A DNA stretch of 64,000 nt. Origin: Trileptium ribeirensis. Taxonomy: Eukaryota; Nematoda; Enoplea; Enoplida; Thoracostomopsidae. Below are positions 24,914 to 39,867 of this stretch, one piece after another. The stretch spans positions 62,001 through 126,000 of the forward strand of contig JASANE010012636.1 in assembly GCA_030248225.1 (NCBI GenBank), given 5' to 3'. Position 1 is the stretch's first letter, and the number at the start of each line of letters is the position of its first letter. The position numbers were made by a program, and so were the translations under genes. A model generated the notes under the pieces. That model was not told the origin of the DNA. It saw only the letters and a program-made list of their open reading frames with translations, and did no database searches.

Positions 24914-24919
24914 CACATA
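24914..24919. repeat. Maverick left target-site duplication CACATA
   Basis: Six bases, CACATA, directly precede the left TIR (AGTAGTAGG). The same six bases directly follow the right TIR at 39,862-39,867. Six-base duplications are characteristic of Mavericks/Polintons. Confidence 0.95.
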
Positions 24920-25308
24920 AGTAGTAGGAAAAAGGGGGGTTCTACTCCAGATGATTAATGACCTGTCAAATTTTTAGGAGAAATAATGATTAATTACCCC
25001 GGGTCACGTGACGTCATCCGGAGGGTGATTAATTAGCATATCTAGCTAATCAATCAATCGCAGCTGTCAAACCCAACAGTCCCAGCACAGCTCTCAAACC
25101 CAACAGTCCCAGCGAAGCTGGGTTCCAGAAGCGAGGATAATGAATAATTAACCCAAAGGGTAATTATTCATTATCTGAGATTGTATAAAATAATGATTTA
25201 TTAACAAACAAACACCCCTACCGGTCACCATCAGCCGCAAGCCATAGGTCAAGCCTATGGTCAACAGGACCCAGCGACCGGTAGGATAATAATAAAACAA
25301 TAACAATA
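24920..25308 (+). repeat. Maverick left terminal inverted repeat
   Basis: This repeat is near-identical to the reverse complement of 39,474-39,861. Differences are confined to a G-run about 15 bp from the tip and to a few bases at the inner edge. Inside it are two copies of CAAACCCAACAGTCCCAGC, a 40-bp near-perfect palindrome (25,136-25,175) and a second hairpin-forming block around gccataggtcaagcctatgg. Confidence 0.95.
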
Positions 25309-25357
25309 AAAAAATTTTTGTATTTTTTCATTATCTTCAGTTTCGCCACCCAATGCC

Positions 25358-25660
25358 CTACGGATGATAGTGCAGGGGACACACATCTTCCCCGAAGGCG
25401 TTTGCATAGTGATCGAGACAGTAGTCCACCACTATCTCAGGTACTTCGGCAGGATGGAACCACATACATTCATGTGGCTCGTACTGACGTATGTGCTCCA
25501 TTATCGCACACAAAATTGGAATGGCAATCCCAAGATCACCCAATGTCATATCCGCCCAGACCACCGAAATATCGTGAATGAATTCCGGATGATCTAATAT
25601 GATATGCGCTAATGCCATATCAATTGAAATGCTATCATTACAAATAAAGCAGATAGTCAT
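25358..25660 (-). CDS. Maverick minus-strand small zinc-finger protein (100 aa), divergent from PolB
   Basis: The frame is open on the minus strand, with the first ATG at 25,660 (MTICFICNDS). It shows one C2H2-like finger, C4-x2-C7-x11-H19-x4-H24, followed by a Trp- and His-containing acidic region ending VCPLHYHP. It is transcribed away from the polymerase gene, the typical layout of a regulatory gene in a compact virus. The minus-strand word ACATGAAGTG, 8 of 10 matches to the element's ACATGAAAAG motif, begins 43 bp upstream of this ATG. I do not recognise the family. A DNA- or RNA-binding role is only inferred from the finger. Confidence 0.55.
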   Translation of the reverse strand: MTICFICNDSISIDMALAHIILDHPEFIHDISVVWADMTLGDLGIAIPILCAIMEHIRQYEPHECMWFHPAEVPEIVVDYCLDHYANAFGEDVCPLHYHP

Positions 25661-25831
25661 ATTTATATTATCTAAAATATAAAAATTCACATGCACTTCA
25701 TGTGCTTACTCACATGTATGCTAAATGTTAATCACATGAAAATACCTTCTAGAAGTTACGCTTCGCTGATTTTATTTACGCTTCACTGATTATTATAGCT
25801 TGAGGCTATGTGTAGGTGTACATCAAAAGGG

Positions 25832-25838
25832 TATATAA
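25832..25838 (+). promoter_or_regulatory. TATA box of the polymerase gene
   Basis: TATATAA begins 41 bp upstream of the PolB ATG (25,873), at the distance where most other Maverick genes carry ACATGAAAAG instead. No copy of that motif lies in this window for PolB; the nearest variant, ACATGAAAAT, is 139 bp upstream of the ATG. Confidence 0.6.
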
Positions 25839-25872
25839 GTTGCTGTAATTTTCGAGTTTTCATCAGTTTACT

Positions 25873-28800
25873 ATGACGCTAATATCAGAAGTGTTTGGTT
25901 TTATGTTGTTTTTACTTTCTCAACCTCTCAGAGGCTTTCTTGAAAGCTACCAAGTTATATCAAGGTATGCTGTTCAAGATCCTGTACAATTTCTACACAG
26001 CAGCAGAAAGCAGTTGGACGCTCTGATTCAACAAAAGCTGGGTCAATGGAACGCGATGAAGGTCTACGTTGGGATGAAAGTCACCTTCGAAAAGGATTTG
26101 GACCCCTCAACTACGATTACGGCAACATTCTCGGCACGGATTCAACGAATTTTCAATTTCGTCAACATATCACGCCAGTCAACAAACATTTTTCAAGAAA
26201 TTATAAATAACATCGATAATTTTGTTCAACGCGGATCTGGCTGGGTCATCAGAAATGTGGACAATCTCGATATTCACCTGGCGAAGTACGTTGGACTTCG
26301 AGGCTCAACCTATGCGGCTCTCCCTAAGTCGGTTCAAGCAAAGAGGGCTATTATTAACGTAGTCAATAATGACAATAAATGCTTCCTTTGGGCTGTACTT
26401 TCTGCCTTATATCCTATTCCAGAAAAAGACCATCCTGAGCGTCAGACTAAATATGAACCGCATCTGAATAATTTAAACTTTAATGGCATAAATTTCCCCG
26501 TAAAAGTATCACATATCGACAAATTCGAAAAACTTAACAATATAGGTATAAGTATATTCACTTGGCATAACAGTAACGTAATACCTTTGCGGATATATGA
26601 AGGTAACTGTAATAAAGTAATAAACCTAATGTTGTACAAACAGCACTACAGTTGGATAAAGGACCTTGATCGACTGCTTTCCACCCAAAGGAATAAAAAA
26701 AGCAAAAAGCACTTTTGCCAACGCTGCCTTATTCCAAAGTATTCTGAAGAAAAGCTCAAGCAGCACTATGAAATGTGCAAGCTCAACCAACCTACTAGGG
26801 TCACATTTCCAAAGGACAAAACGCTTCAATTTCGAAACACTCATAGAATGCTCCGGTCTCCGTATGTTGTATACGCTGATTTTGAATCGTTGCTACTACC
26901 TATTCACTCAGCACAACCATCACCATCCACTTCCTACACTGAAGCATATCAGCGACATCAAGTATGTGGCTACGCTTTCATAGATGTCTTCCAATGCTGT
27001 GACAACACAACGCGTGAGCTTGGAGTCCCTGTTGTTTATCGTGGTGAAAATGCAATTGAACACTTTATTCACAGACTTATCGAATTGGGTAAACAGTATC
27101 AAGATCGCGTAAACAATATAATCCCCCTTGACATGACAAAAGATGACTGGTACCAATTTAAACTCGCAACTGATTGCTTCATTTGTGGAAAAGCATTATT
27201 ATACGACAGAGTCAAGGATCATTGTCATTTATGTGGAAAATTTCGAGGAGCTGCCCATTCTGAGTGCAATATTGGTTACAAACTCAACAGGGATGTGAGC
27301 GTCTTCTTCCACAACCTCCGGAAGTATGATGGTCATATGATTATGCAACAAATTGGTAAAATCACTGCTCAAAATAAACTCTCTCTCGACTGTGTACCCA
27401 AAGGGGCTGAGGATTATTTGTCATTTAAAATCAAACTCAAGCATGAACAGCCCCAAATTCCAACTATCAACGTTCCAGCTATTGATCCAAATAGCCACCT
27501 CGCTCATCTGTTTGCAAAGCATGACTTACTCCAGCCACACAACACTCCACATCTTATTCATAATGTTACCGAAGAAGAACTGTCTGATGACGATGATCTA
27601 GAAATGGATGAAGAAAGCGATGAGGACATTTGCGAGTTTGTTGATAATATGGCCGAAGTGGAGAACACTGAAATCAAGGATGACAAACCAAAAATTAAGA
27701 AATACACCTGGTCCATCCAATTCAAAGATAGCCTACAGTTTCTACCTTCTTCCCTCCAAACGTTGGTCGATAACCTGAAGCAAGGTGGAAACTTTCCAGT
27801 AATGGAAAAACAATTCGGAGATGCGACAACGTTAATGCTTGGCAAAGGTATTTATCCCTATGATTATATGAACAATTGGGATCGTTTCAACGAAAACTGT
27901 CTACCTCCTATACACGAATTTCATAGCAAAATTAACAATGAAAATATATCGGAGGAAGACTACCAGCGTGCTAGAGAAGTTTGGTACAAAATGAATGTTA
28001 AAAATATGGGAGAATACCATGACTTGTACGTGTTAACAGATGTTTTACTGTTATGTGATGTATTTGAAAACTTTAGAACTTTTGCTCTGGAAAATTACAA
28101 ACTGGATCCGGTACACTATATAACACTACCCAGCTTTGGTTGGGATGCCTGTTTAAAACTGTCTGGTGTAAAGCTCCAGTTACTGAGTGATCCTGACATG
28201 TATATGTTTTTTGAACAAGGCATTCGAGGTGGTATTTCTATGATTTCACATCGATATGCCAAAGCAAACAATAAGTATATCGAAAATTTTAATTCATCAA
28301 TAATATCAAGTTATATACTGTACCTGGATGCCAACAATCTTTATGGATGGACTATGGTGCAGAAGTTACCAGTAGATGGTTTTAAGTGGGTTGAGCAATC
28401 GAGGCTGGCTGCCCTAGATTGGTGTAAGGACCAGGATATAGGCTACGTATTAGAAGTAGACCTTGAGTACCCAGAGCATTTACATCATATTCATGCCGAT
28501 TACCCCCTCGCCCCCGAATCCTTAGAAATTGGAGACTCAATGTTATCACCATATTGTAAGGATGTCAAGCATAAGTTTGGTATGAAGAATTCTTCGATTA
28601 AAAAATTAGTACCAAACCTAAGCAACAAAACAAAATATATAGTACATAGCAGAAACCTTAAACTGTATGTTGAGCTAGGTCTTAGAGTAACGAAAATTTA
28701 CAGAGCAATACAGTTCAGGCAAAGCAAATGGATGGAACCTTATATAACCTTCAACACGAAAAAGAGACAAAATGCGAAAAGCACCTTTGAAAAAGATTTG

Positions 28801-29427
28801 TTTAAACTTCTCAATAACGCTGTTTTCGGTAAAACTATGGAAAATGTAAGAGCCTATAGGGACATCCAACTGGTAAATTGCCCTAAAAAATTTTCAAAAT
28901 TAGTTGCTAACCCAAGATATGATGGAAGCACCATTTTCGACGAAAATCTTGTAGCTGTTTCTATGAAAAAGGCAAGCGTATGTCTGTGTAAACCGATATA
29001 CGTCGGGTTTACTGTCCTTGATCTTTCGAAAATGCTTATGTATGATTTCCATTATAATTACATTAAAACTAGGTTCAACTGTCAATTGCTTTTTACCGAC
29101 ACGGATAGTTTATGCTATCATGTGTATTCAGAAGACGTGTATGAGGACATGAAAGAAGATATAAACCTCTTTGATACTAGTGAGTACCCTGAGCAGCACT
29201 TTTTGCATTTTACTGCTAACAAAAAAGTGCTTGGAAAAATGAAGGATGAAACAGCAGGGATCCCTATAGAGGAATTCTGTGGTTTGAAGCCTAAAATGTA
29301 TACCTTCAGAGTGAAAGGTGGGAAGGTTCATAAGAAAGCAAAAGGTGTAAAAAATAACACGCCTAAGTCAGCTGTAACCATGGAAGATTATATAAACACT
29401 CTAAAGGAGACCACACATGCGGCATAA
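25873..29427 (+). CDS. Protein-primed family B DNA polymerase (PolB), frame lost at C-terminus
   Basis: This is the replicative polymerase of Polintons, copying the linear element from a terminal protein. Visible in the 1,184-aa frame: Exo I YADFE (D336, E338), Exo II FFHNLRKYD (479-486), Exo III Y719/D723, motif A YLDANNLYG (D819), motif B KLLNNAVFGKT (978-988) and motif C DTDS (1076-1079). Extra modules are an N-terminal region with DNKCF (C170) and QHY (H258) that may be an OTU-like cysteine-protease fold, a C2HC finger C282-C285-H298-C302, and an endonuclease VII/HNH-like zinc cluster (C435, C438, HCH 450-452, C454, H462, C465) between Exo I and Exo II. All exonuclease and polymerase acidic residues are present. 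The conserved C-terminal tail lies in another frame just downstream, so the frame shown ends wrongly. Confidence 0.95.
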   Translation: MTLISEVFGFMLFLLSQPLRGFLESYQVISRYAVQDPVQFLHSSRKQLDALIQQKLGQWNAMKVYVGMKVTFEKDLDPSTTITATFSARIQRIFNFVNISRQSTNIFQEIINNIDNFVQRGSGWVIRNVDNLDIHLAKYVGLRGSTYAALPKSVQAKRAIINVVNNDNKCFLWAVLSALYPIPEKDHPERQTKYEPHLNNLNFNGINFPVKVSHIDKFEKLNNIGISIFTWHNSNVIPLRIYEGNCNKVINLMLYKQHYSWIKDLDRLLSTQRNKKSKKHFCQRCLIPKYSEEKLKQHYEMCKLNQPTRVTFPKDKTLQFRNTHRMLRSPYVVYADFESLLLPIHSAQPSPSTSYTEAYQRHQVCGYAFIDVFQCCDNTTRELGVPVVYRGENAIEHFIHRLIELGKQYQDRVNNIIPLDMTKDDWYQFKLATDCFICGKALLYDRVKDHCHLCGKFRGAAHSECNIGYKLNRDVSVFFHNLRKYDGHMIMQQIGKITAQNKLSLDCVPKGAEDYLSFKIKLKHEQPQIPTINVPAIDPNSHLAHLFAKHDLLQPHNTPHLIHNVTEEELSDDDDLEMDEESDEDICEFVDNMAEVENTEIKDDKPKIKKYTWSIQFKDSLQFLPSSLQTLVDNLKQGGNFPVMEKQFGDATTLMLGKGIYPYDYMNNWDRFNENCLPPIHEFHSKINNENISEEDYQRAREVWYKMNVKNMGEYHDLYVLTDVLLLCDVFENFRTFALENYKLDPVHYITLPSFGWDACLKLSGVKLQLLSDPDMYMFFEQGIRGGISMISHRYAKANNKYIENFNSSIISSYILYLDANNLYGWTMVQKLPVDGFKWVEQSRLAALDWCKDQDIGYVLEVDLEYPEHLHHIHADYPLAPESLEIGDSMLSPYCKDVKHKFGMKNSSIKKLVPNLSNKTKYIVHSRNLKLYVELGLRVTKIYRAIQFRQSKWMEPYITFNTKKRQNAKSTFEKDLFKLLNNAVFGKTMENVRAYRDIQLVNCPKKFSKLVANPRYDGSTIFDENLVAVSMKKASVCLCKPIYVGFTVLDLSKMLMYDFHYNYIKTRFNCQLLFTDTDSLCYHVYSEDVYEDMKEDINLFDTSEYPEQHFLHFTANKKVLGKMKDETAGIPIEEFCGLKPKMYTFRVKGGKVHKKAKGVKNNTPKSAVTMEDYINTLKETTHAA

Positions 29428-29581
29428 AATGCGCAAAATTGCCAATAAGCAACATGAGTTGTATACAGTTGAACAAAACAAAATAAGTTTAAGTGCATAT
29501 GATGATTAGCGATATCTTTTGTTAGATGGTGTAACCTCCGTGCCATATGGCCATTGTGATATAATGGATTGTTGTGATTAA
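29417..29581 (+). pseudogene. Out-of-frame C-terminal tail of PolB
   Basis: Starting near 29,417, in the +1 frame relative to the main polymerase frame, the translation contains HELYTVEQNKI and YLLLDGVTSVPYGH, the characteristic end of Maverick polymerases. An in-frame TAG at 29,507-29,509 interrupts it between SAYDD and RYLLL. The polymerase gene therefore has two lesions, a frameshift near 29,415 and a nonsense codon. The domain core upstream is unaffected. Confidence 0.8.
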
Positions 29582-29758
29582 ATGTTTTGTGTGTTATGCT
29601 ATGTTTTATAAGTAAATGAGTTTACGTCATTAACACTGGTATATCTTATATTTCGCAACGAAACAGAGTACATAAGAACATATAAAATACTCTAACATAA
29701 TTGCGGGATACAAATCACCCAAGAGAAAGTATGTGTCTTGTATCCTACAATTTTAAAA
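29582..29758. other. Short Maverick spacer after PolB
   Basis: This is AT-rich sequence between the end of the polymerase tail and the first late-type promoter motif. I see no coding signal. Signals for 3'-end formation of the polymerase transcript would lie here, but none could be identified with confidence. Confidence 0.4.
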
Positions 29759-29768
29759 ACATGAAAAG
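29759..29768 (+). promoter_or_regulatory. ACATGAAAAG motif 1 (membrane protein gene)
   Basis: Exact 10-bp match beginning 36 bp upstream of the ATG at 29,795. Its internal ATG is out of frame with that gene. Confidence 0.7.
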
Positions 29769-29794
29769 AGAAATTAATTTAGTATCTTATAGTC

Positions 29795-30409
29795 ATGGAA
29801 TCTAAAACAGTATCCTTCACTGAACCGTTAGAGGAGCTGTCGTACGAAAACGCTGGTAACTGTGGAAAAAAGTTTGATTTGAAAAAGGTCGTGGTTATAA
29901 TCGGAACCCTTTTAACAACTATAGTTTTAGAAGCTGGGTTTTTAATTGATAAACATAAAAAAGACAATTGCGTTGAAGGTATATCGTTAAATGGTCCCTT
30001 ATGTTTTGAAGATTGGACCAAGCCTCCCATTGAGTCATGGTATCCTGAACGAGGCTACAATATACACTGGGTTAATAGAGGTACGGAGAATTTGCAGTTT
30101 GAAATTATACTGCATCTACCTCGTACAGCAACTCTGTGGAGTGAAAAAGTACTCTATATATTTGATATTTCTGAACATTTATTCAAAACATTTATAGTAC
30201 CATATAGTAACCTATTAGTTCTAATTCAAACTGGTAGTGACTACCGCGGATTTTATATAATAAACTGTAATATCGGCTATACATTTGTATCTAAATTAGC
30301 TACATTTGATTTAAGTAGCGTAATTAAGAACCGTCTTATTCGAGTAAATATTAAGAATGCTAACGTATTCCTTCCACGCTCTAACGAAACATCGACAGTA
30401 CGAAAATAG
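29795..30409 (+). CDS. Maverick membrane protein, 204 aa, unknown function
   Basis: The frame is intact and starts MESKTVSFTEPLEEL. A charged N-terminal segment of about 27 residues (ending GKKFDLKK) precedes one hydrophobic span, VVVIIGTLLTTIVLEAGFLI (about 32-51). The remaining 150 residues are a beta-strand-like, Cys-containing domain (CVEG, PLCFEDW, YIINCNIGY). The topology suggests a single-pass type II protein with the C-terminal domain outside the cytosol. I do not recognise the family; a virion surface or membrane role is only a guess. The gene is preceded by a correctly spaced promoter motif and lies between PolB and integrase. Confidence 0.65.
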   Translation: MESKTVSFTEPLEELSYENAGNCGKKFDLKKVVVIIGTLLTTIVLEAGFLIDKHKKDNCVEGISLNGPLCFEDWTKPPIESWYPERGYNIHWVNRGTENLQFEIILHLPRTATLWSEKVLYIFDISEHLFKTFIVPYSNLLVLIQTGSDYRGFYIINCNIGYTFVSKLATFDLSSVIKNRLIRVNIKNANVFLPRSNETSTVRK

Positions 30410-30486
30410 TGTCACATCCTGGTTTATTCTAACAGAAGAATCAAGATTTTGGATAATTGAAGAATGTTTGAAGAAATACTCAACCA

Positions 30487-30644
30487 TGAAATATATCGGA
30501 AATGATGAATTTGTACTAGAAAAGCAGTTTGATGACATTGTTGGTGTTGTAATGCCTAGCGGAATTTTAACCAAAACAGCTCGTATAGTATATGATGTGT
30601 GTAAACATAAAATTATTACATGTTATCCAATAAAACAAACATGA
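30487..30644 (+). CDS. Possible small Maverick protein (52 aa from an internal start)
   Basis: A frame open from 30,357, overlapping the membrane-protein gene, continues to 30,644. The first ATG clear of that gene is at 30,487 (MKYIGNDEFVLEKQF). The translation is balanced and contains TKTARIVYDVCKHK but has no family I recognise. No ACATGAAAAG motif lies at the expected distance upstream, which weakens the call. It may instead be a decayed longer gene. Confidence 0.3.
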
Positions 30645-30648
30645 AAAG
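30639..30648 (+). promoter_or_regulatory. ACATGAAAAG motif 2 (integrase gene)
   Basis: Exact match beginning 38 bp upstream of the integrase start chosen at 30,677. Confidence 0.7.
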
Positions 30649-30676
30649 CTTTGTTTTTATTTATCTAGAAACCAGA

Positions 30677-31739
30677 ATGAAACTGAGTGAAATTTATTAT
30701 AATCATAAAAACCCAGCCTCGTACGGAAGTATCAATAGACTATGGCTAGCTGCCAAGAAACATGGGTACAAAAAAAAGCAAGTTGTTGAATGGCTACAGG
30801 CACAAGACACCTATACCTTACATAAACCTAAACGCAAGCAATTTAGACGAGTTTGAACTGTAGTTAAAGGTCTCAATGATCTTTGTGCAAATTGATTTAG
30901 CTGATATGTCAAATATTTCTAAATACAATGAGGGTTTCAAGTACTTGTTAGTTGTTATCGATGCATTATCAAAATTCCTACGACTATCTCCAATAAAGTC
31001 AAAGACATCTAATTCGGTTTGTGAAGTCATGGAAAACATGTTTCAACAGCAAACACCCACACATATTTTCTCTGATCGAGGAACGGAATTTGTGAATATA
31101 AAATTTCAAAATCTCTGCAAACGCTACAAAGTTATTTATTATACTGCTCAAAATGTTGAAACTAAGGCAGCCATGGCAGAAAGATGTATTCGAACCATAA
31201 AATCCAAACTATACAAATACCTAACAAAACATAATACGTATCGTTACATCGATGTAATACAAGATATTGTAGACAACTACAATCATACAAAAAACCGTTA
31301 CGGCTTCCGCCCTGTTGATGTTACCACACAAAACCAATCTGATATACTGCAAATACTTCATCCATCAATACCACATCGCCAAATTAACTACAAATTTAAG
31401 CTGAATGACTCTGTACGGGTAGCTGGGAATCAGTATGTTTTTGAAAAGGGGTACCGTCCACAATGGTCCCAAGAAGTCTTTTACATTACTAATCGTATAC
31501 CATCTGATCCTCCTCGGTACAAAATTTCAGATTACCATGGAGAAAATATTTTGGGTACCTGGTATGAACCTGAGTTGCAACAAGTTCGTGTAGGACACAC
31601 CTTCAAAGTGGAAAAAATACTACGAAAAAGGACTGCTAAAGATGGTACTCGCCAGTATTTTGTAAAATGGCTGGGATATCCTAAAAAGTTCAACAGCTGG
31701 GTTAACGAAAAAGACATGGAAAGGGTAGAGACAACTTAA
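30677..31739 (+). pseudogene. Chromodomain integrase (c-IN), broken by a stop and a frameshift
   Basis: This is a retroviral-type DDE integrase of the Polinton class, which inserts element DNA and creates the 6-bp duplication. The N-terminal part, 30,677-30,853 (YYNHKNPASYG...KKKQVVEWL), is cut by TGA at 30,854-30,856. The remainder, 30,876-31,739, lies in another frame, with a shift between about 30,880 and 30,890. In the 287-aa downstream frame the catalytic acids are visible: D7 (IDLAD), D67 (FSDRGTEF) and E102 (AERCIRTIK). The last ~45 residues form a chromodomain (FKVEKILRKR...FVKWLGYP...SWV) typical of Polinton integrases. The catalytic core is intact but cannot be joined to the N-terminal domain as the sequence stands. 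Confidence 0.9.
31714..31723 (+). promoter_or_regulatory. ACATGGAAAG, one-mismatch late motif (ATPase gene)
   Basis: Nine of ten bases match ACATGAAAAG. It begins 34 bp upstream of the ATPase ATG and lies inside the 3' end of the integrase frame. Confidence 0.6.
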
Positions 31740-31747
31740 TATGAAAA

Positions 31748-32365
31748 ATGGAAGCAATTCCTCTAGAAGTTCCTTTCACCTGTATAGTATCTGGAGCCAC
31801 AGGAGTTGGTAAAACACATCTAGTGGCTGAATTACTACGCAGGAACCTATTTGATAAATCATTTGATAAAATTATCTGGTGTTACGGTATGATGCAACCA
31901 TTATACCACAAGTTAGGGAAAGAAATAACGACTTTAAAGTTTGAAGAAGGGTTTCCCGACAGTTTAGAACATTACGATGGGCATTCACTCTACATTTTGG
32001 ATGACTTAATGGAATATTCAAACGATAAAACCCTTGCAACTATGTTTACTAAAATGAGGCATGCAAACATTAGTACCATTTTTATCGTACAAAACTTTTA
32101 TCATTCTGGAAAGTACATGACTGAAATTTCGAGAAATGCTCAGTACTTATTCTTGTTTCCAAACCCTCGTTCAAAATCAATGATTGCGACTCTTGGAAGA
32201 CAAATATGGCCTCTTAAACCTAACTTTTTGTCTACAGCATTTGAAATGGCAACTAATAGGAAGCCATACAGTTATTTGATGATTGATCTTAAGCCAAATA
32301 CACCTGAAGAATTGCGTGTTAGAGAAAATATTTTTGGACAAACTGCAGTATACAAACCAACATGA
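31748..32365 (+). CDS. FtsK/HerA (A32-like) genome-packaging ATPase, 205 aa
   Basis: Predicted DNA-packaging ATPase that would load element DNA into a capsid, as in PRD1-adenovirus-lineage viruses. The Walker A motif is VSGATGVGKTHL (about residues 13-24) and the Walker B motif is SLYILDDLM (about 80-88). An MFTKMRHANISTIFIVQNFY block with a sensor-type Gln and an FLFPNPRSKSM block follow. Length is typical for the family and the frame is intact. The stop codon overlaps the ATG of the next promoter motif (ATGA). Confidence 0.92.
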   Translation: MEAIPLEVPFTCIVSGATGVGKTHLVAELLRRNLFDKSFDKIIWCYGMMQPLYHKLGKEITTLKFEEGFPDSLEHYDGHSLYILDDLMEYSNDKTLATMFTKMRHANISTIFIVQNFYHSGKYMTEISRNAQYLFLFPNPRSKSMIATLGRQIWPLKPNFLSTAFEMATNRKPYSYLMIDLKPNTPEELRVRENIFGQTAVYKPT

Positions 32366-32369
32366 AAAG
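32360..32369 (+). promoter_or_regulatory. ACATGAAAAG motif 3 (small Polinton protein gene)
   Basis: Exact match overlapping the ATPase stop codon. It begins 35 bp upstream of the ATG at 32,395, which argues for that ATG over the in-frame ATG inside the motif at 32,362. Confidence 0.65.
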
Positions 32370-32394
32370 GTTTATTGGAATGCCGTGTGTGAAG

Positions 32395-32697
32395 ATGGAG
32401 CGACATTCTTCAACAATCTCATTGGCATATGCCCTAGTAAGAACTGACCGCCGATGCCTTAAAAGCTTTATGAAGGTTGCCCCTCGTTCATTAATTAGGT
32501 CATTAAGCGAAATTTGCTACAACATTTTATACGGTAATTTTCCTTTGACGCCTCAGCAGATAAAACAGTTACGCAGGCAGCGTACTGCAATTTACCGACT
32601 GGCATCTATGAAACTATCTGATAACATGAAAAGACAACACATTACCATAGACCTTCTCAAAGCATTGATTGCAATATGGCCAAGCGATACCTATTAG
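32395..32697 (+). CDS. Conserved small basic Polinton protein, 100 aa
   Basis: The protein begins MERHSSTISLAYAL from the start chosen by promoter spacing (112 residues if begun at 32,362 are also open). The block ICYNILYGNFPLTPQQIKQL followed by RRQRTAIYRLASMKLS resembles a short, Arg/Lys-rich protein found widely in Polintons and adintoviruses. I suspect a virion core or minor structural role by analogy, not from a motif. The hydrophobic C-terminus (LLKALIAIWP) fits that family's pattern. It overlaps the next gene by 22 bp. Confidence 0.7.
   Translation: MERHSSTISLAYALVRTDRRCLKSFMKVAPRSLIRSLSEICYNILYGNFPLTPQQIKQLRRQRTAIYRLASMKLSDNMKRQHITIDLLKALIAIWPSDTY
32624..32633 (+). promoter_or_regulatory. 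ACATGAAAAG motif 4 (LVP-type protein gene)
   Basis: Exact match inside the previous gene, beginning 52 bp upstream of the ATG at 32,676 and out of frame with it. Confidence 0.6.
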
Positions 32698-33086
32698 TGC
32701 CCCCAAGCTGGCTTGAAAAACAGACGCAAAATGACAATGAGTCCGTGAAAATTAATGTCGATACTGTTGAGGACAAGCCGAAAGAAGAGATTTCAGCTCT
32801 GTTTTCAAAACGTTTGCAATCAAAAGTGAAATTACTCTCCAACCATCTGAAACCCATAAAGCAAGATGCAAATAATCGTGTTGAGTATAATGACGGTTCC
32901 GTAGGTTCCACTCTGTATGATATAATAAGGTATTTAGTAACTGACAGCGGAAAATTTTCTGCCCCTCGTCCAATAGATATTGAGCAATTTCGAACAGAGT
33001 ATATGCAGGGTGTACCAAATGGAGCGTTGGGAAAGGGTAAAGAAGTACATGAAAAGCAAAATATAGATTGGAAACGTTTATATTGA
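32676..33086 (+). CDS. Polinton-type protein with N-terminal K-R-Y-L-L-V-P, 136 aa
   Basis: The N-terminus MAKRYLLVPPSWLEKQ matches the start pattern of a protein regularly found beside the small basic protein in Polintons and adintoviruses. The middle is charged (EDKPKEEISALFSKRLQSKVK) and the C-terminal half contains YDIIRYLVTDSG and PNGALGKGK. Its function is unknown to me; a virion-associated role is plausible from position. The frame is intact and overlaps the preceding gene by 22 bp. Confidence 0.65.
   Translation: MAKRYLLVPPSWLEKQTQNDNESVKINVDTVEDKPKEEISALFSKRLQSKVKLLSNHLKPIKQDANNRVEYNDGSVGSTLYDIIRYLVTDSGKFSAPRPIDIEQFRTEYMQGVPNGALGKGKEVHEKQNIDWKRLY
33047..33056 (+). promoter_or_regulatory. 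ACATGAAAAG motif 5 (NADAR gene)
   Basis: Exact match inside the previous gene, beginning 45 bp upstream of the ATG at 33,092 and out of frame with it. Confidence 0.65.
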
Positions 33087-33091
33087 TCGAT

Positions 33092-33625
33092 ATGTCGACT
33101 ACATTCAAAATTTGTGAATCGAAAGATGGACGACCCTTGGCCTTGTTTGCCACTGGTTATTGTCCGCTGAGCAGTGTACATGTTGCTGATTTCAAAGTGA
33201 ACGACATGACATATAGCAGCATTCAACAGTATTACGAGTCAGAAAAAGCTAACTACTTTAACTGTTATGAAGCTAGATATGAAATTTTGATGGAGCGTTC
33301 TCCAAAGAAAATAATAAACATTGGCGATAATCTGAAATTTTTTGAGCAACCGGAATGGGACAAGGTAAAGTATGACGTCATCCTCAAGGCAATGGAGGCT
33401 AAAGCTAATCAACATAATGCTACCTATGATTTGCTGATGTCTACAAATAATGCTGTGATTGCGGAGGCAAGCAAATTTGGCTATGGAATTGGATTATATA
33501 TAGCAGATACAAACGTAAATGACACTAGTCTATGGACTAGAGACAATTGGTACGGTCGTCTGTGGATGTCAGTTCGCTATGGACTTCAAAATAATCAACT
33601 TAGTGGTAAAGACTGCAACGCATAA
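33092..33625 (+). CDS. NADAR (YbiA-like) domain protein, 177 aa
   Basis: NADAR proteins are N-glycosidases acting on ADP-ribose-type or riboflavin-pathway substrates; some remove ADP-ribose from guanine bases in DNA. The family signature is visible in order: FATGYCPLSSVHVADF, then MTYSSIQQYYESEKA, then WDKVKYDVILKAMEAKANQH, LLMSTNNAVIAEAS, GYGIGL and W...NWYGRLWMSVR. The first helix has QQYY where most members have E-x-x-Y, and the usual W-G-I-G reads Y-G-I-G, so activity needs testing. The start at 33,092 is preferred over 33,068 by promoter spacing and lies 6 bp after the previous stop. It overlaps the TBP-like gene by 47 bp. I know of no standard Polinton gene of this type. Confidence 0.85.
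   Translation: MSTTFKICESKDGRPLALFATGYCPLSSVHVADFKVNDMTYSSIQQYYESEKANYFNCYEARYEILMERSPKKIINIGDNLKFFEQPEWDKVKYDVILKAMEAKANQHNATYDLLMSTNNAVIAEASKFGYGIGLYIADTNVNDTSLWTRDNWYGRLWMSVRYGLQNNQLSGKDCNA
33495..33502 (+). promoter_or_regulatory. Possible TATA box for the TBP-like gene
   Basis: TATATATA (33,495-33,502) lies inside the NADAR gene, 84 bp upstream of the TBP-like ATG at 33,579. The usual ACATGAAAAG motif is absent upstream of this gene. AT-rich words are common here, so support is weak. Confidence 0.3.
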
Positions 33626-34097
33626 CGAAATTAATTTGCTACAGCTAAGCAGGATTCTACACCGATTAACGTATAACCCTCAACGTTTTCGTGCTGGAAC
33701 TTTGAAATCTTCACACGGAAGTGTAATGCTATGGCCAAATGGCAAACTAGTCTTTCTGGGATACAAGTCAATGGATGATGTGCGTTTGGATGCGAACAAT
33801 ATGAAGAAAATTTTGAAAAATTTTGGATATCGGACAGATGAATTTGAATTTGATATTTGTTCAGTAACTGGACTCTGCAACTTGAATGATGTTATAAATT
33901 TGACTTGTTTATATGAGAAGCTGAGAGGCTTTTACACTGTTATATATTTACCTGAATTATTTCCAAGCTTGAGCTTTAGATATAAAACTGGTACCTTATC
34001 AGTTTTTAGAACAGGAAAAATTGTAATAACAGGTGTAAAGTCCCTCGGTGATATGTATGATATTGTCGATGATGTATGTGAATTAATTTTGAAGTAA
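33579..34097 (+). CDS. TATA-binding-protein homologue encoded by the Maverick, 172 aa
   Basis: Both imperfect repeats of the TBP saddle are present and nearly nothing else. Repeat 1 has I-x-N-L-V, YNPQRF (32-37) and WPNGKLVFLG (52-61). Repeat 2 has LPELFPSL (124-131) and FRTGKIVITGVKS (143-155), followed by the final helix ending ELILK. The DNA-kinking aromatic positions of TBP are occupied by F37, W52, F128 and F143, so three of four Phe are kept and one is Trp. There is no N-terminal extension. Length equals the TBP core (about 180 aa). It could recruit host Pol II factors or compete with host TBP. The start at 33,579 is chosen because the homology begins four residues later; the frame is open from 33,519. 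The gene lacks the promoter motif found before its neighbours. Confidence 0.88.
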   Translation: MDFKIINLVVKTATHNEINLLQLSRILHRLTYNPQRFRAGTLKSSHGSVMLWPNGKLVFLGYKSMDDVRLDANNMKKILKNFGYRTDEFEFDICSVTGLCNLNDVINLTCLYEKLRGFYTVIYLPELFPSLSFRYKTGTLSVFRTGKIVITGVKSLGDMYDIVDDVCELILK

Positions 34098-34116
34098 AGA
34101 TAAAACAATAGCACTA

Positions 34117-34126
34117 CATGAAAAGG
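34117..34126 (+). promoter_or_regulatory. ACATGAAAAG motif 6 (84-aa protein gene)
   Basis: Exact match beginning 37 bp upstream of the ATG at 34,154 and out of frame with it. It lies in a true intergenic gap, 20 bp after the TBP-like stop codon. Confidence 0.7.
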
Positions 34127-34153
34127 CTATCATAGTGCAGATAAACAGTTAAA

Positions 34154-34408
34154 ATGGAGATCATTGTTGTAAGAAAACTAAATGATTTGAAAGTGCAGCT
34201 TCCTATACCAATACAAGCCACTTTTGTTAACGTAATTGGATACAAGTTAGTTGGTTCAGTAGACAAAAATAAAATGCCTTATATGGTAAAGGCAAATTTT
34301 ATTGAAGCTAAAATTTTAAATTCAGGTTTTTCGGAAACCTTATGTGTTTTGACAGGACAAAAGGTAGATACGTGCTGTAAACTAAAGAGTATATACATAT
34401 ACCTCTGA
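34154..34408 (+). CDS. Small Maverick protein of unknown function, 84 aa
   Basis: The frame is intact from MEIIVVRKLNDLKVQL to CCKLKSIYIYL, with beta-strand-like alternation and no clear motif. It has a perfectly placed promoter motif upstream and is followed by a 135-bp gap with the next motif, which supports it as a real gene. I do not recognise a family. A truncated structural protein is possible. Confidence 0.55.
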   Translation: MEIIVVRKLNDLKVQLPIPIQATFVNVIGYKLVGSVDKNKMPYMVKANFIEAKILNSGFSETLCVLTGQKVDTCCKLKSIYIYL

Positions 34409-34497
34409 ATTGTTTTTTTGAAGTTACAGACAATGCGGGAAACGGGCTTTCTTCCCTTGCGGATAAAGTTTTGTACTTACATTTAAATTTTATAAAA

Positions 34498-34507
34498 ACA
34501 TGAAAAG
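34498..34507 (+). promoter_or_regulatory. ACATGAAAAG motif 7 (basic core-like protein gene)
   Basis: Exact match beginning 46 bp upstream of the ATG at 34,544 and out of frame with it. Confidence 0.7.
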
Positions 34508-34543
34508 GAATTAAACATTGTCTATTAAGCATTGTTCAAAACA

Positions 34544-34761
34544 ATGTCTATTAGTGTGAAGATCAATCCAGTGTTTCAAGGACAGAGATTAAAAACCAAG
34601 CGCAAGATTTTAAAATCCAAACGCAAGACTATGAAATTCAAGAAAAAAATCTAAAAGCCAAACGTCAAACGTTGAAACGAAAAAAGCTCAAAGTAGTCGG
34701 ACGAAGGTTTAAAATACATGAAAAGAAACTCAAACACCCAAAATCCAAGAAAATTTTCTAA
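34544..34761 (+). pseudogene. Lys/Arg-rich core-like protein, interrupted by a frameshift
   Basis: From the ATG at 34,544 the frame gives 36 residues (MSISVKINPVFQGQR...), then a run of KTKRK/KSKRK repeats, and stops at 34,654. The frame open to 34,761 (KAKRQTLKRKKLK... KSKKIF) continues the same basic, heptad-like repeat pattern. The two share an A7 run at 34,643-34,649 where a single-base change would swap frames. Such composition suits a DNA-condensing virion core protein (protamine or adenovirus VII/mu analogue), but there is no diagnostic motif. It lies immediately before the capsid gene. Confidence 0.55.
34716..34725 (+). promoter_or_regulatory. ACATGAAAAG motif 8 (capsid gene)
   Basis: Exact match inside the basic-protein gene, beginning 47 bp upstream of the capsid ATG at 34,763. 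The internal ATG is in frame with the capsid gene, so an upstream start at 34,718 cannot be excluded. Confidence 0.65.
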
Positions 34762-34762
34762 C

Positions 34763-36071
34763 ATGGACAACTGTGCAGTACAAAACCTTGACTGGAGTAG
34801 AAAACCTAAACAGCAGAATGAGATTGAAAGCTGTCAACTTGTAGAGTTTACAAGTGTCAGTGGACAGCAAATTGAGGATGCCGCAACACCATTGGAATTT
34901 AAGATTCCAAAATCTGACTACCTGGTTGATATGAATCAGCTATTTCTCAAATTCAAAGTGAAACTGATTGCTAAGCCAACCACCAGTCAACAAATCAACT
35001 CCAAAGAAGGTAGAAAAACGTCAAGCCCTTGGAAACCCAATTATGCATTGTAATCAATTTGGTTATGCAATATTTAGCCAAGTAGATGTCAAAATCAACA
35101 ACGAAATAATAACTTCAAACCAAGCAAACTATCCTTGGATGACATACATCTTAAACCTTTTACATTACTCTAGCGAGGAACGAAATTGCCATCTTCGAAC
35201 CGCTCTTTGGTTTCAAGATAGTGCCTATTCCATGGATAGTTTCGAAGACAATGATGGTGCTACAGCTAGACAAGCCTACTTTTTCAAGAGCGATGAGTGT
35301 ACTCTGTATTTACCGGTTGTTACTTCGGTTATATTCAATGGTGGATATCTACCACCACAAACGGAAGTATCTTTGAAGTTTTCCCGGAGCGCTCTATCTC
35401 AAATTGTTCAAACAAGAGACAATGCGCAATGTAATATGATTATCAGTGAACCGATACTCAAAGCAAGTCTTGTGAAGCTCAAAAGTGCCACGCTAGATTA
35501 CTGTGAAAAGTTATATCGATCGAAAGGAGCTCTCTACCCCTGTGTGACGGATGAACTGCGAACATTTGGATTAGGGAAGGACAACCAAAATTTCGATTAT
35601 ACAGTTTTCGAAGACGACTTGCCTCGACGGATATTCGTATAGATGGTTTCAAAAGACACTTATAATGGAAACGTTAGCAAGAATATCTTCAACCTAAAGC
35701 TTCCAGAAATGTCAAAGTTTCAAGTGCTTGTAAACAATCTAACATTACCAGGACAGACACCGCTCATCGTCAGCTCAAAAACTTGTCCTGAGGTTTATGC
35801 TAATTTGCTCCATGGTCTAAACTACCGGAACCGTGATCTTGGGTTTTCACCAATCGATATGTTTGGAGGATTTGGTGTATTTGCTGTGGATGTGTCTCCA
35901 GATCATTCAAGCAGCTGTGGAAACTACATTTCTAAAGTAAAGGATGGAAATCTAAGGTTAATAATAGACTTTGCTAAGACGCTAAACGAATCCATGGTCC
36001 TATTTGTGATGTGTGAATTTACGAAGACTTTGAAGATAACTAAAGATGACAATAAAATTGAGTGGTTGTAA
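34763..36071 (+). pseudogene. Major capsid protein (double jelly-roll, hexon-like), broken by frameshift and TAG
   Basis: Homologue of the Polinton/adintovirus capsid protein that would form the icosahedral shell. N-terminal part: EFKIPKSDYLVDMNQLFL, the first strands. Middle part: FGYAIFSQVDVKINN, then YPWMTYILNLLHYSSEE. C-terminal part: GNVSKNIFNLKLPE and GGFGVFAVDVSPDHSS, then LRLIIDFAKTL and LFVMCEF. The first segment ends at a stop at 35,051-35,053 and the homology continues one frame over from about 35,050 to 35,639. A single TAG at 35,640-35,642 then separates this from a final in-frame segment to 36,071. Total span, about 435 codons, suits the family. Neither stop looks programmed. 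The assignment rests on pattern order and not on an alignment score. Confidence 0.8.
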
Positions 36072-36133
36072 CTTTGTGTTGTATCTTATTGTATCCATTT
36101 GTGTATTTTTAAATAAAAAAACAAAAAAATAGC

Positions 36134-36143
36134 ACATGAAAAG
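36134..36143 (+). promoter_or_regulatory. ACATGAAAAG motif 9 (58-aa basic protein gene)
   Basis: Exact match beginning 44 bp upstream of the ATG at 36,178; an in-frame ATG also lies in the motif (36,136). Confidence 0.65.
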
Positions 36144-36177
36144 GATTGTATCCTGTATATATATTTATATATTCATT

Positions 36178-36354
36178 ATGCATGCAGTACGTAAATTTTT
36201 CATGAAGCGTAAACGTGATGAGGATATTATTAGGGAATACAAACGACGGATTGCCGAATACAAGGAGCAGGAGGCTCAGGGAATGGACGTACCGGACACA
36301 TTTCCACCCTCTGTGGAGTTGAGGGAATTTCTGCGAAAACGAGGGAAGCGATAG
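36178..36354 (+). CDS. Small basic Maverick protein, 58 aa
   Basis: The protein starts MHAVRKFFMKRKRDED and contains a Glu/Arg-rich, probably helical stretch (REYKRRIAEYKEQEAQG), ending REFLRKRGKR. It is intact, with the promoter motif in place. Function is unknown. Charge and size would suit a virion accessory or nuclear protein, but nothing is diagnostic. Confidence 0.55.
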   Translation: MHAVRKFFMKRKRDEDIIREYKRRIAEYKEQEAQGMDVPDTFPPSVELREFLRKRGKR

Positions 36355-37562
36355 TTTATTTTGATTTTGGATGCTTTTTGCATCCAGCACAGATGTATGT
36401 AGCATGTCTACAGATGTGTGAACAATCTACTGTTACTTGTAATCAACAGTACAAAATAATTATGCTTGAAATTTAAATATGTTGGCTGCTTATTTTTGTG
36501 ATTTGGGCTCCCAGTAAGGAGATAGAGCCCGTCAAAGGTTCATACTACAAACTCAAAATTTGTTCAAAGTGCCCCAATGTCTACATTTTTGGATTCCCCG
36601 TACCCGAAAACCTTTCTTCAAGTTTTACAAAATTTGGTTATTTTTGGGATTTGGGCTCCCAGTAAGGAGAGAGAGCCCGTCAAAGTCCTAGGGAGCAAAG
36701 CTATTACTTGTCCAAATAGCGTCAATGACTACATTTTTGGATACGATGTAACATTGCTACAAGTATGTAACTATAATGTGTTGAGATACTTATTTAGCGG
36801 CACTTAAATCAGAGTGAACAGTAATAGCGAGAAACCCCCTATAAGCAGTAACAGTACAAAATTAAATAAGGGAATGAAATCACAATCATCGAAAATTATG
36901 AACCAGATACGTGTAAAACTACTAGGTTAAGTGCTTAGAGCAAAAGATAACTCGAACAAACAGTGAAACTACTTCAAAATAATATGATTTAAGACAATAA
37001 GACAAAATAAGACAGACATAGCTATAAAAGCAGGGAAAAGGTTAAGGGCTGAAGCAGCATTAAAAATGCTCTCACGTTACAGCACTCCAAAGTAACCAAC
37101 AAAAGCGTACAACTTGATCAAAGACACAGGCAGTAATCTTCCTAGTAGCGTAAATTGAGAATGAAAATTGAAGGGTTTATATAGTATAAGAATTTGCCTC
37201 GGGCGTTATTTAGTTAGTGGACCATAAAATCGGATGTTTGGAGGTGGGTTAAACGATAGTTTTAAAATCGGATGTTGAAAAATTAAATATTTTGCCAGTT
37301 GAGATCATTAATTGTAATTAGGAATTCCCAGTTTCACGTGAATCACTGCAAAATCGTATGCGAATAAACTTCACCTTCGTAGGAATTGTACCAACTGGTT
37401 ATTAATCAGACCACGCGTTTTCAATTTCTAAAGGCCTAGTTCACGTGAATAATTACGTAAAGATTCTATTCATAAAACTTCATTTTCGTAAAATTATAAA
37501 AGTTTAAAGTATTTCCCACCTACTACCTGAATTCTTCAAGGTCAACTGTAGGTTGGTATAGG
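36355..37562. other. Non-coding right-hand part of the Maverick
   Basis: I find no supportable gene over 1.2 kb. A unit of about 148 bp occurs twice (from 36,491 and from 36,639); each has the 6-bp stem GGGCTC/GAGCCC around ccagtaaggaga. The rest is AT-rich. The usual Polinton protease and penton genes are not here. Confidence 0.5.
36491..36780 (+). repeat. Tandem duplication (about 148 bp) with hairpin
   Basis: Copies starting at 36,491 and 36,639 share gggctcccagtaaggaga and, further on, ctacatttttggat. Each contains the inverted hexamers GGGCTC and GAGCCC, able to form a hairpin. Function is unknown; 3'-end formation of capsid-region transcripts is one possibility. Confidence 0.6.
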
Positions 37563-37569
37563 TATAAAA
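37563..37569 (+). promoter_or_regulatory. TATA box of the chromodomain cargo gene
   Basis: TATAAAA lies 123 bp upstream of the ATG at 37,686. The gene lacks the ACATGAAAAG motif. Confidence 0.5.
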
Positions 37570-37685
37570 CAGGTGACGCAGCTGTTAGAAACATTTCACT
37601 TTGAACAGTTACTGTTGTCTACATTCTAAACTAGCCATTCGGTTGTGTCGCTATTTGGGTTTCGAGCTTTGTTGTTATTGTAATT

Positions 37686-39564
37686 ATGGATGCTTTCGCG
37701 CTTGCTCCAGTTTTTGACACGTTTGATGTTGAAGACATAGTAAATGTGGTAAGTAAGTTTTGCTTTAGTGTAAAGGTATTTTGATCCTTTTCCTGCATCT
37801 ATTATCCTTGTTTATTGCTTGAAAAGTTTGCCTAATATTGTTTGCTAAGTAGTAAAGCCAAGGTACTACATAGATGAATTTAAATTAAGCAAATGTTGGG
37901 AATATCATAGGTCAAGCATAACCCATTCGGTATGTTTAATTTAAGTAAATTCTTCGTCTGTCTTTAACACGAGTAATTTTCACACATTAAATTGCAGAAG
38001 TACGAAGATAATCAGCTTCTTTTCGAAGTCTGTTGGAAACCTTCATGGGTACCAGAATACGATCTCTACAACTGTGAAAAATTGTTGGCAAAATACTACC
38101 TGCAGCCGAGCACTGTCAACTATGACTATCACCAACAGACCCAGCCACCGTGTTTATCGCAGGACTATGTATCCAGTGAAAAGGAACAATATAAGTTGAA
38201 CAAGATCCTATACTTGGTAAGTCCAGTGTTCAATGGTAGGAAGAGCTACGTTTGATTGATATATAGCAGTATGTCTGATAACTGTTCTGACAGAAAGCAA
38301 CAAAATTGTGAAAGTATGTTGTTTTAACAAAAGAAAAACGCAACACATAAAAAATACAAACCCCGTGCAAGAACAAAATAAACATTTATAAGTATAGCTC
38401 AGCGATGTGCGGTAGTTGCGACCTCACCAGTTTAGTCGTTTCGTATAGAATATTGCAAAATTTGGTGGCTATCAAAATTAATTGGTCGCCGCTGTGGATG
38501 GTATAAATACATAAAATGCGTCCATATGACTGCATAGCTATATCAGACATTCACATTGCTTCTAGCATAAAAATTTTTTCTATTACATAACTGAGAGATG
38601 AAGTGCATTGTATTCGCTGGGTTTATACCCATGATATGTCAAGCATTAGTGTTACTTCGGTGTTGTGTGGTTTCGAGATAGCTTCAGCCTGTGCACAATT
38701 TATTCATGTAGGATCTGACAATTTTGAAGAACCTACAGCTGTGCATACAACAGCGCTACAACTCACCTTACGCAATTTTCTGTATTGCTAGTTTTCTAAA
38801 AATGTTTTTTAATTATAGCTTAGGTGCGTCCTATTGTAGCCAGCTACGGTAGGATTAAATGTTACGTGACCCATTACGCTGGAGCGGAAAGAGGTTCAAA
38901 TATGAAGGGAAACATCCAATTACTTGATTTATAGGCGTTAATCTGCTTAAAAATTTTAGATTGGCTAAGTCGAGACACATAAATACTGAGAAATTTTCTA
39001 TGTCTACAAACACTATTTCCTAAGTACTTTCTCATAATACATTGTCTAGATCCTAGACATAAACATAAAGATGGTGTTAATTGTATGTTATGTACAAAAA
39101 CGTTGTTAAAACATTTTTGATATACTTAAGTATAGTTTAAAAATAAACTTACAAGTAATATTGTCTTATTCAGTTATTATGAAGGCGTGGAGTAAGACTT
39201 AGGAACCAGTTTTTAAGGTTACTGTTTCTAGGACGAAAATGATGACGGTCAAAGCATGGCACAGGTACGATGGGAGAATACAATAGAGCCGCTGGAAAAC
39301 ATACAGGGCTGTGATCGATTTCTATTAAAATTCATAAAATTTGATTCGCTGCCAGTGATAAAGATCTGTGATATACCATTTGAGTGCTACGATGGCATGA
39401 ATATGGAATGGGGGAGGAAGAAGAGAAAATATTTCAACAGGTGCAAAATGATCCACTATGGAAAATTATGGATAATTGATATTGTTTTATTGTTATCCTA
39501 CCGGTCGCTGGGTCCTGTTGACCATAGGCTTGACCTATGGCTTGCGGCTGATGGTGACCGGTAG
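37686..39564 (+). CDS. Spliced chromodomain gene carried by the Maverick (204 aa)
   Basis: Three exons join in phase 0 with good GT-AG sites: 37686-37748 (ends before GTAAGT), 37998-38216 (TTGCAG / GTAAGT) and 39232-39564 (TTCTAG acceptor). The product begins MDAFALAPVFDTFDVEDIVNV and forms a chromodomain across the first junction (FDVEDIVNV, then LLFEVCWKPSWVPEYDLYNC, then LLAKYY). A second chromo-like half (MAQVRWENTIEPLENIQGC, LLKFI) lies in exon 3. The frame runs through the inner edge of the right TIR and stops there; a weak donor (CAG|GTGCAA) at 39,441 is an alternative end. Introns are unusual for a Polinton gene and suggest capture from the host. It may read histone methylation and steer integration or silencing. 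Confidence 0.65.
38217..39231 (+). other. Intron 2 of the chromodomain cargo gene
   Basis: The intron runs from GTAAGT to TTTCTAG. It is AT-rich and I find no additional exon or gene inside. Confidence 0.5.
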
Positions 39565-39861
39565 GGGTGTTTGTTTGTTAATAAATCATTATTTTATACA
39601 ATCTCAGATAATGAATAATTACCCTTTGGGTTAATTATTCATTATCCTCGCTTCTGGAACCCAGCTTCGCTGGGACTGTTGGGTTTGAGAGCTGTGCTGG
39701 GACTGTTGGGTTTGACAGCTGCGATTGATTGATTAGCTAGATATGCTAATTAATCACCCTCCGGATGACGTCACGTGACCCGGGGTAATTAATCATTATT
39801 TCTCCTAAAAATTTGACAGGTCATTAATCATCTGGAGTAGAAACCTCTTTTTCCTACTACT
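39474..39861 (-). repeat. Maverick right terminal inverted repeat
   Basis: Reverse complement of the left TIR with only a few differences, ending CCTACTACT at 39,861. The 40-bp palindrome recurs at 39,607-39,646. Confidence 0.95.
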
Positions 39862-39867
39862 CACATA
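39862..39867. repeat. Maverick right target-site duplication CACATA
   Basis: Identical to 24,914-24,919. Confidence 0.95.

What the first reader, a model, noticed from the sequence alone, without database searches (positions are those of the whole stretch)
29759..36143. A 10-bp motif, ACATGAAAAG, at a fixed distance upstream of Maverick genes
Nine exact copies (29759, 30639, 32360, 32624, 33047, 34117, 34498, 34716, 36134) and one single-mismatch copy (31714) lie on the + strand within 6.4 kb. Distances from motif start to the chosen ATG are 36, 38, 35, 52, 45, 37, 46, 47, 44 and 34 bp. An exact 10-mer is expected far less than once by chance in this length. Only some of the embedded ATGs are in frame with the gene downstream, so the motif is not a shared N-terminus. 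Several copies lie inside the preceding gene. The spacing is that of a TATA box with a short leader.
Basis: partly seen in the sequence, partly recalled or inferred. Interest (0 to 1): 0.93.

Follow-up and report, generated by a model that had tools for sequence, protein, structure and literature searches.

The report
Mobile element with private TATA boxes
A virus-like mobile element carries its own version of TBP, the protein that cells use to mark where genes start, and most of its genes are preceded by one shared 10-letter box that this protein is predicted to read, so the element likely runs a private gene-switching system inside its host's nucleus.

Summary
In detail: nine exact ACATGAAAAG (one coordinate off by one) and one near copy, all + strand, 34-52 bp before ten ORFs of a 14.9-kb Maverick (24920-39861; 6-bp target duplication, 388-bp inverted repeats). 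The same genome holds many related elements with such TBPs, and the box differs by TBP family: A ACATGAAAAG (176 sense, 0 antisense; 31 of 31 loci), B mostly ACATAAAAAG, C CTTAAAAAG, D CTTAAAAGG (28 of 28 distinct loci). The two TBP clades changed different DNA-contact residues (F116W in 29 of 29 A/B proteins; F190 replaced in 45 of 45 C/D proteins); the host's own TBP keeps both. In family A, PolB carries the element box plus a canonical TATA box two bases apart. Best reading: the element's TBP reads a private TATA-like box, while PolB can also start from host TBP. Binding and transcription starts are untested. Closest analogue: herpesvirus viral TBP with TATT late promoters. The papers I could search showed no Maverick with a TBP.

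The parts
24914..24919 (.). target-site duplication CACATA, left
24920..25307 (+). left terminal inverted repeat
25820..25829 (+). variant element box ACATCAAAAG before PolB
25832..25839 (+). canonical TATA box TATATAAG before PolB
25873..29427 (+). DNA polymerase B-like ORF (name from recalled motifs; no profile match)
29759..29768 (+). element box, before ORF 29795
29795..30409 (+). unknown ORF
30639..30648 (+). element box, before integrase N-terminal ORF 30677
30677..31739 (+). integrase with chromodomain, in two ORFs in this copy (30677-30856, 30876-31739)
31714..31723 (+). near copy of box (ACATGGAAAG), before ATPase
31748..32365 (+). A32-type packaging ATPase
32360..32369 (+). element box, before ORF 32395
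32624..32633 (+). element box, before ORF 32676
32676..33086 (+). unknown ORF
33047..33056 (+). element box, before NADAR gene
33092..33625 (+). NADAR-domain gene
   Evidence: PF08719 E 1.7e-22
33579..34097 (+). TATA-binding protein of the element
34116..34125 (+). element box, before ORF 34154
34154..34408 (+). ORF labelled penton-like from recall; no profile match
34498..34507 (+). element box, before small basic ORF 34544-34654
34716..34725 (+). element box, before capsid-like ORFs
34763..36071 (+). capsid-like frame, broken into three ORFs in this copy
   Evidence: Capsid_N E 0.14 only
36134..36143 (+). element box, before small ORF 36178-36354
39475..39861 (-). right terminal inverted repeat
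39862..39867 (.). target-site duplication CACATA, right

Best explanation
The ACATGAAAAG copies are likely TATA-position core-promoter boxes of this Maverick's genes, predicted to be bound by a TATA-binding protein that the element itself encodes (33579-34097). Shown by sequence: the TBP gene, the boxes, their strand and position, and the change of box with TBP family. Inferred steps: (1) PolB would be transcribed first through its canonical TATA box by host TBP; (2) the element TBP is made, in family D possibly under its own box (a positive loop), in family A perhaps from the NADAR transcript; (3) it binds the element box, bends it like a TATA box, keeps the TFIIB contact and recruits host RNA polymerase II, which starts about 30 bp downstream and gives short leaders; (4) integrase, ATPase and capsid-like genes are thus switched on together as a later class. 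Because box and TBP change together, each Maverick family would have its own insulated promoter code inside one nucleus.
For: TBP identity: PF00352 E 4.9e-25, two repeats; PDB TBPs down to E 2.6e-16; AF2 model pLDDT 89.3 and Foldseek TM 0.90 to TBP crystal structures. TBP is maintained: dN/dS 0.15-0.31 in 18 of 20 pairs, 0.46 and 0.70 in the others. Box: 176 sense and 0 antisense exact copies in 31 of 31 family-A loci; 98/100 box bases kept between window and C292 copy against 73/100 and 46/100 in the 10-bp flanks. Box changes with family: B ACATAAAAAG 10/0 in 2 loci; C CTTAAAAAG 10/0 in 3 loci; D CTTAAAAGG in 28 of 28 distinct loci, 0 antisense; both CTTAAAA boxes absent from 113 kb of A loci. 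Pieces of the family box are the commonest 8-mers upstream of ORFs in each family in an unguided count. TBP residues at DNA-contact positions (roles recalled) differ by clade: W116, S159, T161, S205 in 29 of 29 A/B proteins; V124, N191 and a replaced F190 in 45 of 45 C/D proteins; E188 kept in 73 of 74. PolB promoters of family A: element box + GG + TATAAAAG, 130 exact in the genome against 0 for the reversed control; of the 100 listed, 76 lie just upstream of a PolB match, which suggests two different readers.
Against: No transcript, start site or binding datum was available. Few independent changes: the tree allows about three splits of box and TBP, so joint inheritance explains much of the match. 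At the TBP-to-next-gene junction of C/D the box overlaps TBP codons (ILKK/ILKR), so there it may be coding; four of ten window boxes also lie in coding ends. ACATGAAAAG also occurs 3/0 in D loci and 4/0 in B loci. In family A no box lies directly before the TBP gene, so how the first TBP is made is open. PolB of one family-B copy shows neither a clear TATA nor an exact box. Within families the box is only modestly better kept than its flanks: rank 10, 4, 1, 1, 19 and 16 of about 102 windows at six junctions. TATAAAAG occurs 33/0 in 25 of 31 A loci, but those sites lie about 10 bp before the start of the gene after ATPase or inside coding sequence, so they are not at TATA distance.
Confidence: 0.72

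Rival explanations
1. The box is a core-promoter element read by a host factor (host TBP, a TBP-related factor or another protein), and the element TBP does something else, such as tying up host transcription factors.
For: The box resembles a weak TATA box; the host has its own TBP; no binding data exist.
Against: Families in the same genome use different boxes at corresponding genes, which one shared host reader does not explain; PolB of family A carries both boxes side by side; the DNA face of the element TBP has changed by clade.
Confidence: 0.15
2. The box is read by a co-infecting virus, as proposed for virophage-like elements, whose machinery differs between families.
For: EMALEs carry type-specific promoter motifs thought to suit different giant viruses (PMC8547959, abstract and one passage).
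Against: The element brings its own TBP under purifying selection, and PolB has a canonical TATA box.
Confidence: 0.05
3. The box is an RNA-level leader signal (translation or processing), not a promoter.
For: It lies 34-52 bp before start codons.
Against: In family A the box contains an ATG that is out of frame or soon stopped at 6 of 10 sites, which would hinder translation if it were in the leader; the boxes of C and D lack it.
Confidence: 0.04
4. The pattern is coding constraint or shared ancestry without regulatory function.
For: Several sites overlap coding ends; box and TBP are inherited together.
Against: In the window the box lies in different reading frames and in noncoding gaps; flanks diverge while it stays; no antisense copies in A to D loci of 2 kb or more apart from one CTTAAAAAG in B.
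Confidence: 0.04

Closest known systems
Beta- and gammaherpesvirus viral TBP (EBV BcRF1, KSHV ORF24, HCMV UL87) with TATT late promoters
   Same: A DNA virus encodes a TBP mimic for a non-canonical TATA box on late genes and uses host RNA polymerase II, while early promoters have canonical TATA (PMC7498053, abstract and introduction passages).
   Different: There the TBP-like domain was found by fold threading, sits in a larger protein and works with five other viral proteins; here it is a 172-aa protein with clear TBP sequence, no partner factor was identified, and the boxes fit C[AT]T[AG]AAA[AG]G.
TBP homologues of nucleocytoplasmic large DNA viruses (such as ASFV B263R) and of mirus-like elements
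   Same: Virus-encoded TBP fold (PMC5825884, abstract; BFVD matches; PMC10675990, passages).
   Different: Large viruses of this kind mostly bring their own RNA polymerase (recalled); no polymerase for RNA was recognised here, and element TBPs form their own group.
Mavirus-like virophage (EMALE) promoter motifs
   Same: Integrating elements of a related class with type-specific promoter motifs (PMC8547959, abstract and methods passage).
   Different: There the motifs are taken to reflect different giant viruses; here a TBP is encoded in the element and the box is TATA-like.
Altered-specificity TBP mutants that use TGTAAA
   Same: Three substitutions in the second repeat let TBP use TGTAAA and other variants (PMC10005294, passage); that L205 is one of the three is recalled, and it is S in family A/B.
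   Different: Laboratory mutants; here natural and family-specific.

Membership tests
Maverick/Polinton | terminal inverted repeats of hundreds of bases | tested here: met
   388 and 387 nt, 383 identical columns
Maverick/Polinton | 6-bp target-site duplication | tested here: met
   CACATA on both sides
Maverick/Polinton | retroviral-type integrase | tested here: met
   rve 1.7e-11, with Chromo 8.8e-12
Maverick/Polinton | A32/FtsK-type packaging ATPase | tested here: met
   Pox_A32 3.5e-7
Maverick/Polinton | protein-primed DNA polymerase B | tested here: inconclusive
   1184-aa ORF with recalled PolB motifs; no PolB profile or PDB match
Maverick/Polinton | jelly-roll capsid proteins | tested here: inconclusive
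   only Capsid_N at E 0.14 in one piece
Maverick/Polinton | adenovirus-type protease | tested here: inconclusive
   no protease profile in the ten ORFs scanned; profiles also missed PolB
TATA-binding protein | two PF00352 repeats and saddle fold | tested here: met
TATA-binding protein, canonical TATA reader | four intercalating phenylalanines | tested here: not met
   W at yeast position 116 in 29 of 29 A/B; H, Y, N, Q or L at 190 in 45 of 45 C/D. A TBP homologue by descent, not filed as a canonical TATA reader
TATA-binding protein, canonical TATA reader | binds a TATA box | not testable with these tools
   no binding data
Beta/gammaherpesvirus late TBP system | TATT box on late promoters | tested here: not met
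   boxes are ACATGAAAAG and relatives
Beta/gammaherpesvirus late TBP system | five further viral activator proteins | not tested
   several ORFs stay unknown

The most novel reading that the evidence does not exclude
One nucleus hosts at least four Maverick families, each running its own insulated TBP-and-TATA-box code: element TBP and box have co-evolved away from the host's TATA system and from each other, making these the first transposons with a private general transcription factor and a natural series of TBP specificities.
Probability: 0.5. Interest if true: 0.95.

Novelty: new variant of a known kind. Interest (0 to 1): 0.85.

Why it matters
How Mavericks time their virus-like genes is an open question. 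A private TBP with a matching private box would explain coordinated control that is set apart from the host, and the four families give natural pairs with which to ask how a nearly invariant protein changes its DNA target. It would also extend virus-encoded TBPs to a 15-kb transposon in which no RNA polymerase gene was recognised.

Tried and rejected
Shared N-terminus: rejected, the box ATG is in frame and open at only 4 of 10 sites. TATAAAAG as a competing box in family A: the 33 sense sites lie about 10 bp before the gene after ATPase (22), or inside coding sequence (11), so not at TATA distance; PolB is the exception. Relatives in viral contigs: the TBP query gave one weak hit (L001 not opened), the ATPase query none, alignment A1 four (L123 and L125 had their ORFs listed and do not look like Mavericks; L122 and L124 not opened), the family-D TBP none. 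Protein search with the family-D TBP: none. PolB by profile, PDB or phage records: no PolB match. Host identity: not found; the COX1 search did not complete. Mavericks without TBP: 91 of 150 ATPase genes have a listed TBP within 4 kb downstream; the other 59 are undecided, since the TBP lists were capped at 150 of 652 and of 764 candidates and some lie at contig ends. The first stretch fetched for a family-B PolB promoter missed it. Rows left out: one search used loci of 2 kb or more, leaving out 44 shorter ones (35 C, 5 D-assigned of which two are host TBP exons, 3 B, 1 A), and L006, which is the window's own copy; L038 and L041 are one copy, so its 99 D boxes in 29 loci are 95 in 28.
Full report
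Observation. The window holds nine exact copies of ACATGAAAAG, all on the + strand between 29759 and 36143, where 0.47 would be expected in the whole window on both strands; the near copy at 31714 is present. One coordinate is off by one (34116). Distances to the next gene start are 34-52 bp. The 10-mer is not confined to Mavericks: the 687-Mb host assembly has 4190 matches against 2199 for the reversed control.

The element. Inverted repeats of 388 and 387 nt (383 identical columns) and the duplication CACATA define an element at 24920-39861. It encodes an integrase with chromodomain, an A32-type ATPase, a NADAR protein and several unknown ORFs. The ORF I call PolB is named from recalled motifs; profiles and PDB sequences did not confirm it. 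'Penton', 'basic' and 'capsid' are labels from recall; the capsid-like frame lies in three ORFs in this copy and the integrase in two. It is a Maverick by its ends, integrase and ATPase.

The missed gene. 33579-34097 encodes a TATA-binding protein: Pfam TBP E 4.9e-25 with two repeats, matches to solved TBPs down to E 2.6e-16, an AlphaFold2 model with mean pLDDT 89.3 from an alignment of four sequences (the five models ranged from 89.3 to 42.3), and Foldseek TM-scores of 0.90 to TBP crystal structures. The host has its own TBP in at least three exons at C9496, so the element protein is not the host gene.

Relatives in the same genome. A search with the window TBP scored 150 of 652 candidate places, one with a family-D TBP 150 of 764. 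I sort what I read into four families by best-matching TBP and by box: A (window-like, about 72-100% identical), B (about 53-59%), C and D (about 31-37%). The gene order ATPase - two ORFs - NADAR - TBP - next ORF - capsid-like is shared by the longer loci read.

The box changes with the TBP. On loci of 2 kb or more turned to the TBP strand, ACATGAAAAG has 176 sense and 0 antisense copies in 31 of 31 A loci, 4/0 in the 2 B loci, 0/0 in the 3 C loci and 3/0 in the D loci. ACATAAAAAG has 10/0 in the 2 B loci and none elsewhere. CTTAAAAAG has 10/0 in the 3 C loci and one antisense copy in B. CTTAAAAGG has 99/0 in 29 of 29 D loci; L038 and L041 are one copy, so 95 in 28. An unguided count of 8-mers 22-62 bp before ORF starts in nine loci puts pieces of the same boxes at the top in each family. 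The boxes fit C[AT]T[AG]AAA[AG]G: a shared AAA[AG]G half and a variable 5' half, near the canonical TATAAAAG.

Selection on the box. At ten corresponding sites of the window and the C292 copy, box bases agree at 98 of 100, the ten bases before at 73 and the ten after at 46 of 100; at six sites of the window and family B the figures are 55, 31 and 20 of 60. Within families the contrast is weaker: at six junctions the box ranks 10th, 4th, 1st, 1st, 19th and 16th of about 102 windows. Some sites are also coding: four in the window, and the C/D site at the end of TBP, where the box encodes ILKK or ILKR; these are not free evidence. The TBP gene is under purifying selection: dN/dS 0.15-0.31 in 18 of 20 pairs, 0.46 and 0.70 in the others.

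TBP residues. In 74 distinct element proteins aligned to yeast TBP, all 29 A/B proteins have W116, S159, T161 and S205, and 28 have R100; all 45 C/D proteins have V124 and N191, 44 have T71, and F190 is H (25), Y (17), N, Q or L. The host exons keep the canonical residues where they cover them. The roles of these positions are recalled, apart from the four intercalating phenylalanines, which PMC10005294 describes (passages). Among 126 aligned TBPs, W116 occurs in six (two A/B representatives, P0001, P0002, P0004, P0009) and non-F190 in four (three C/D representatives, P0058). E188, a recalled TFIIB contact, is kept in 73 of 74, and L189 in all A/B and 28 of 45 C/D. In a tree of 41 rows the element TBPs form one group (support 96/90) with A/B and C/D as halves, apart from the cellular TBPs including the host's; rooting is by midpoint and the bootstrap had not fully settled.

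PolB promoter. In family A a canonical TATA box follows the element box and GG before PolB in 9 of 9 copies read; the box is exact in 6, ACATCAAAAG in the window and C5665, and ATATGAAAAT in C210. The exact ACATGAAAAGGGTATAAAAG occurs 130 times in the genome against 0 for the reversed control. Of the 100 places listed, 76 lie upstream of a PolB match (67 of them at 41-58 bp), 23 are on contigs without a PolB match in the capped list, and one lies elsewhere. CCAATCAGC stands upstream in 7 of the 9 copies and looks like a CCAAT box (recalled).

Mechanism. Different boxes at corresponding genes of elements in one host genome call for a reader that differs between the elements. I therefore propose that PolB can start from host TBP, and that the element's TBP then switches on the remaining genes through its private box with host polymerase. 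In family D (L038) a box stands 25 or 34 bp before the two candidate starts of TBP, a possible positive loop. How the first TBP arises in family A is not explained. Steps from binding onward are inferred. That the families met this host at different times, each with a box suited to an earlier host, is not excluded.

Literature. Searches for Polinton with TATA-binding protein (3 papers), Maverick, Polinton and TBP, Polinton with promoter motif, Polinton and TATA (passages opened in 3, the rest seen as listings), and Maverick with transposon, encodes and TATA-box-binding protein showed no Maverick with a TBP in what I saw; a 2024 animal-virus survey (PMC11071296) has no occurrence of TATA, TBP or promoter. 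Most subscription papers are not in the library. The nearest working analogue is the herpesvirus late TBP with its TATT box (PMC7498053, passages).

Noticed in passing
33092-33625; L003, L005, L036-L039: A NADAR-domain gene sits directly before TBP in copies of all four families by resemblance (Pfam tested in the window and L037 only); no paper in the library held both Polinton and NADAR.
   Followed up: partly
places with open frames of about 330-360 aa: In many C-type copies the open frame around TBP is about twice TBP's length, which may mean a NADAR-TBP fusion.
   Followed up: no
L037, L038, L039 between integrase and ATPase: Short tandem repeats around GGGGTACA or GGGTACATG fill this space in families C and D.
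   Followed up: no
window 24009-24930 and 48961-51423: Three further inverted-repeat pairs (42-106 nt, 83-93%) flank the Maverick, as if it sat inside a larger inverted element.
   Followed up: no
window 55001-56000: One kilobase with GC skew 0.56, far above its surroundings.
   Followed up: no
window 25358-25660, - strand: A 100-aa ORF runs divergently from PolB next to the left inverted repeat.
   Followed up: no
P0022, P0029, P0034, P0036, P0048: Five database TBPs with altered contact residues form a group next to the element TBPs; possibly other viral TBPs.
   Followed up: partly
L122-L125: Four IMG/VR contigs encode TBP relatives; the two opened (L123, L125) do not look like Mavericks.
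   Followed up: partly
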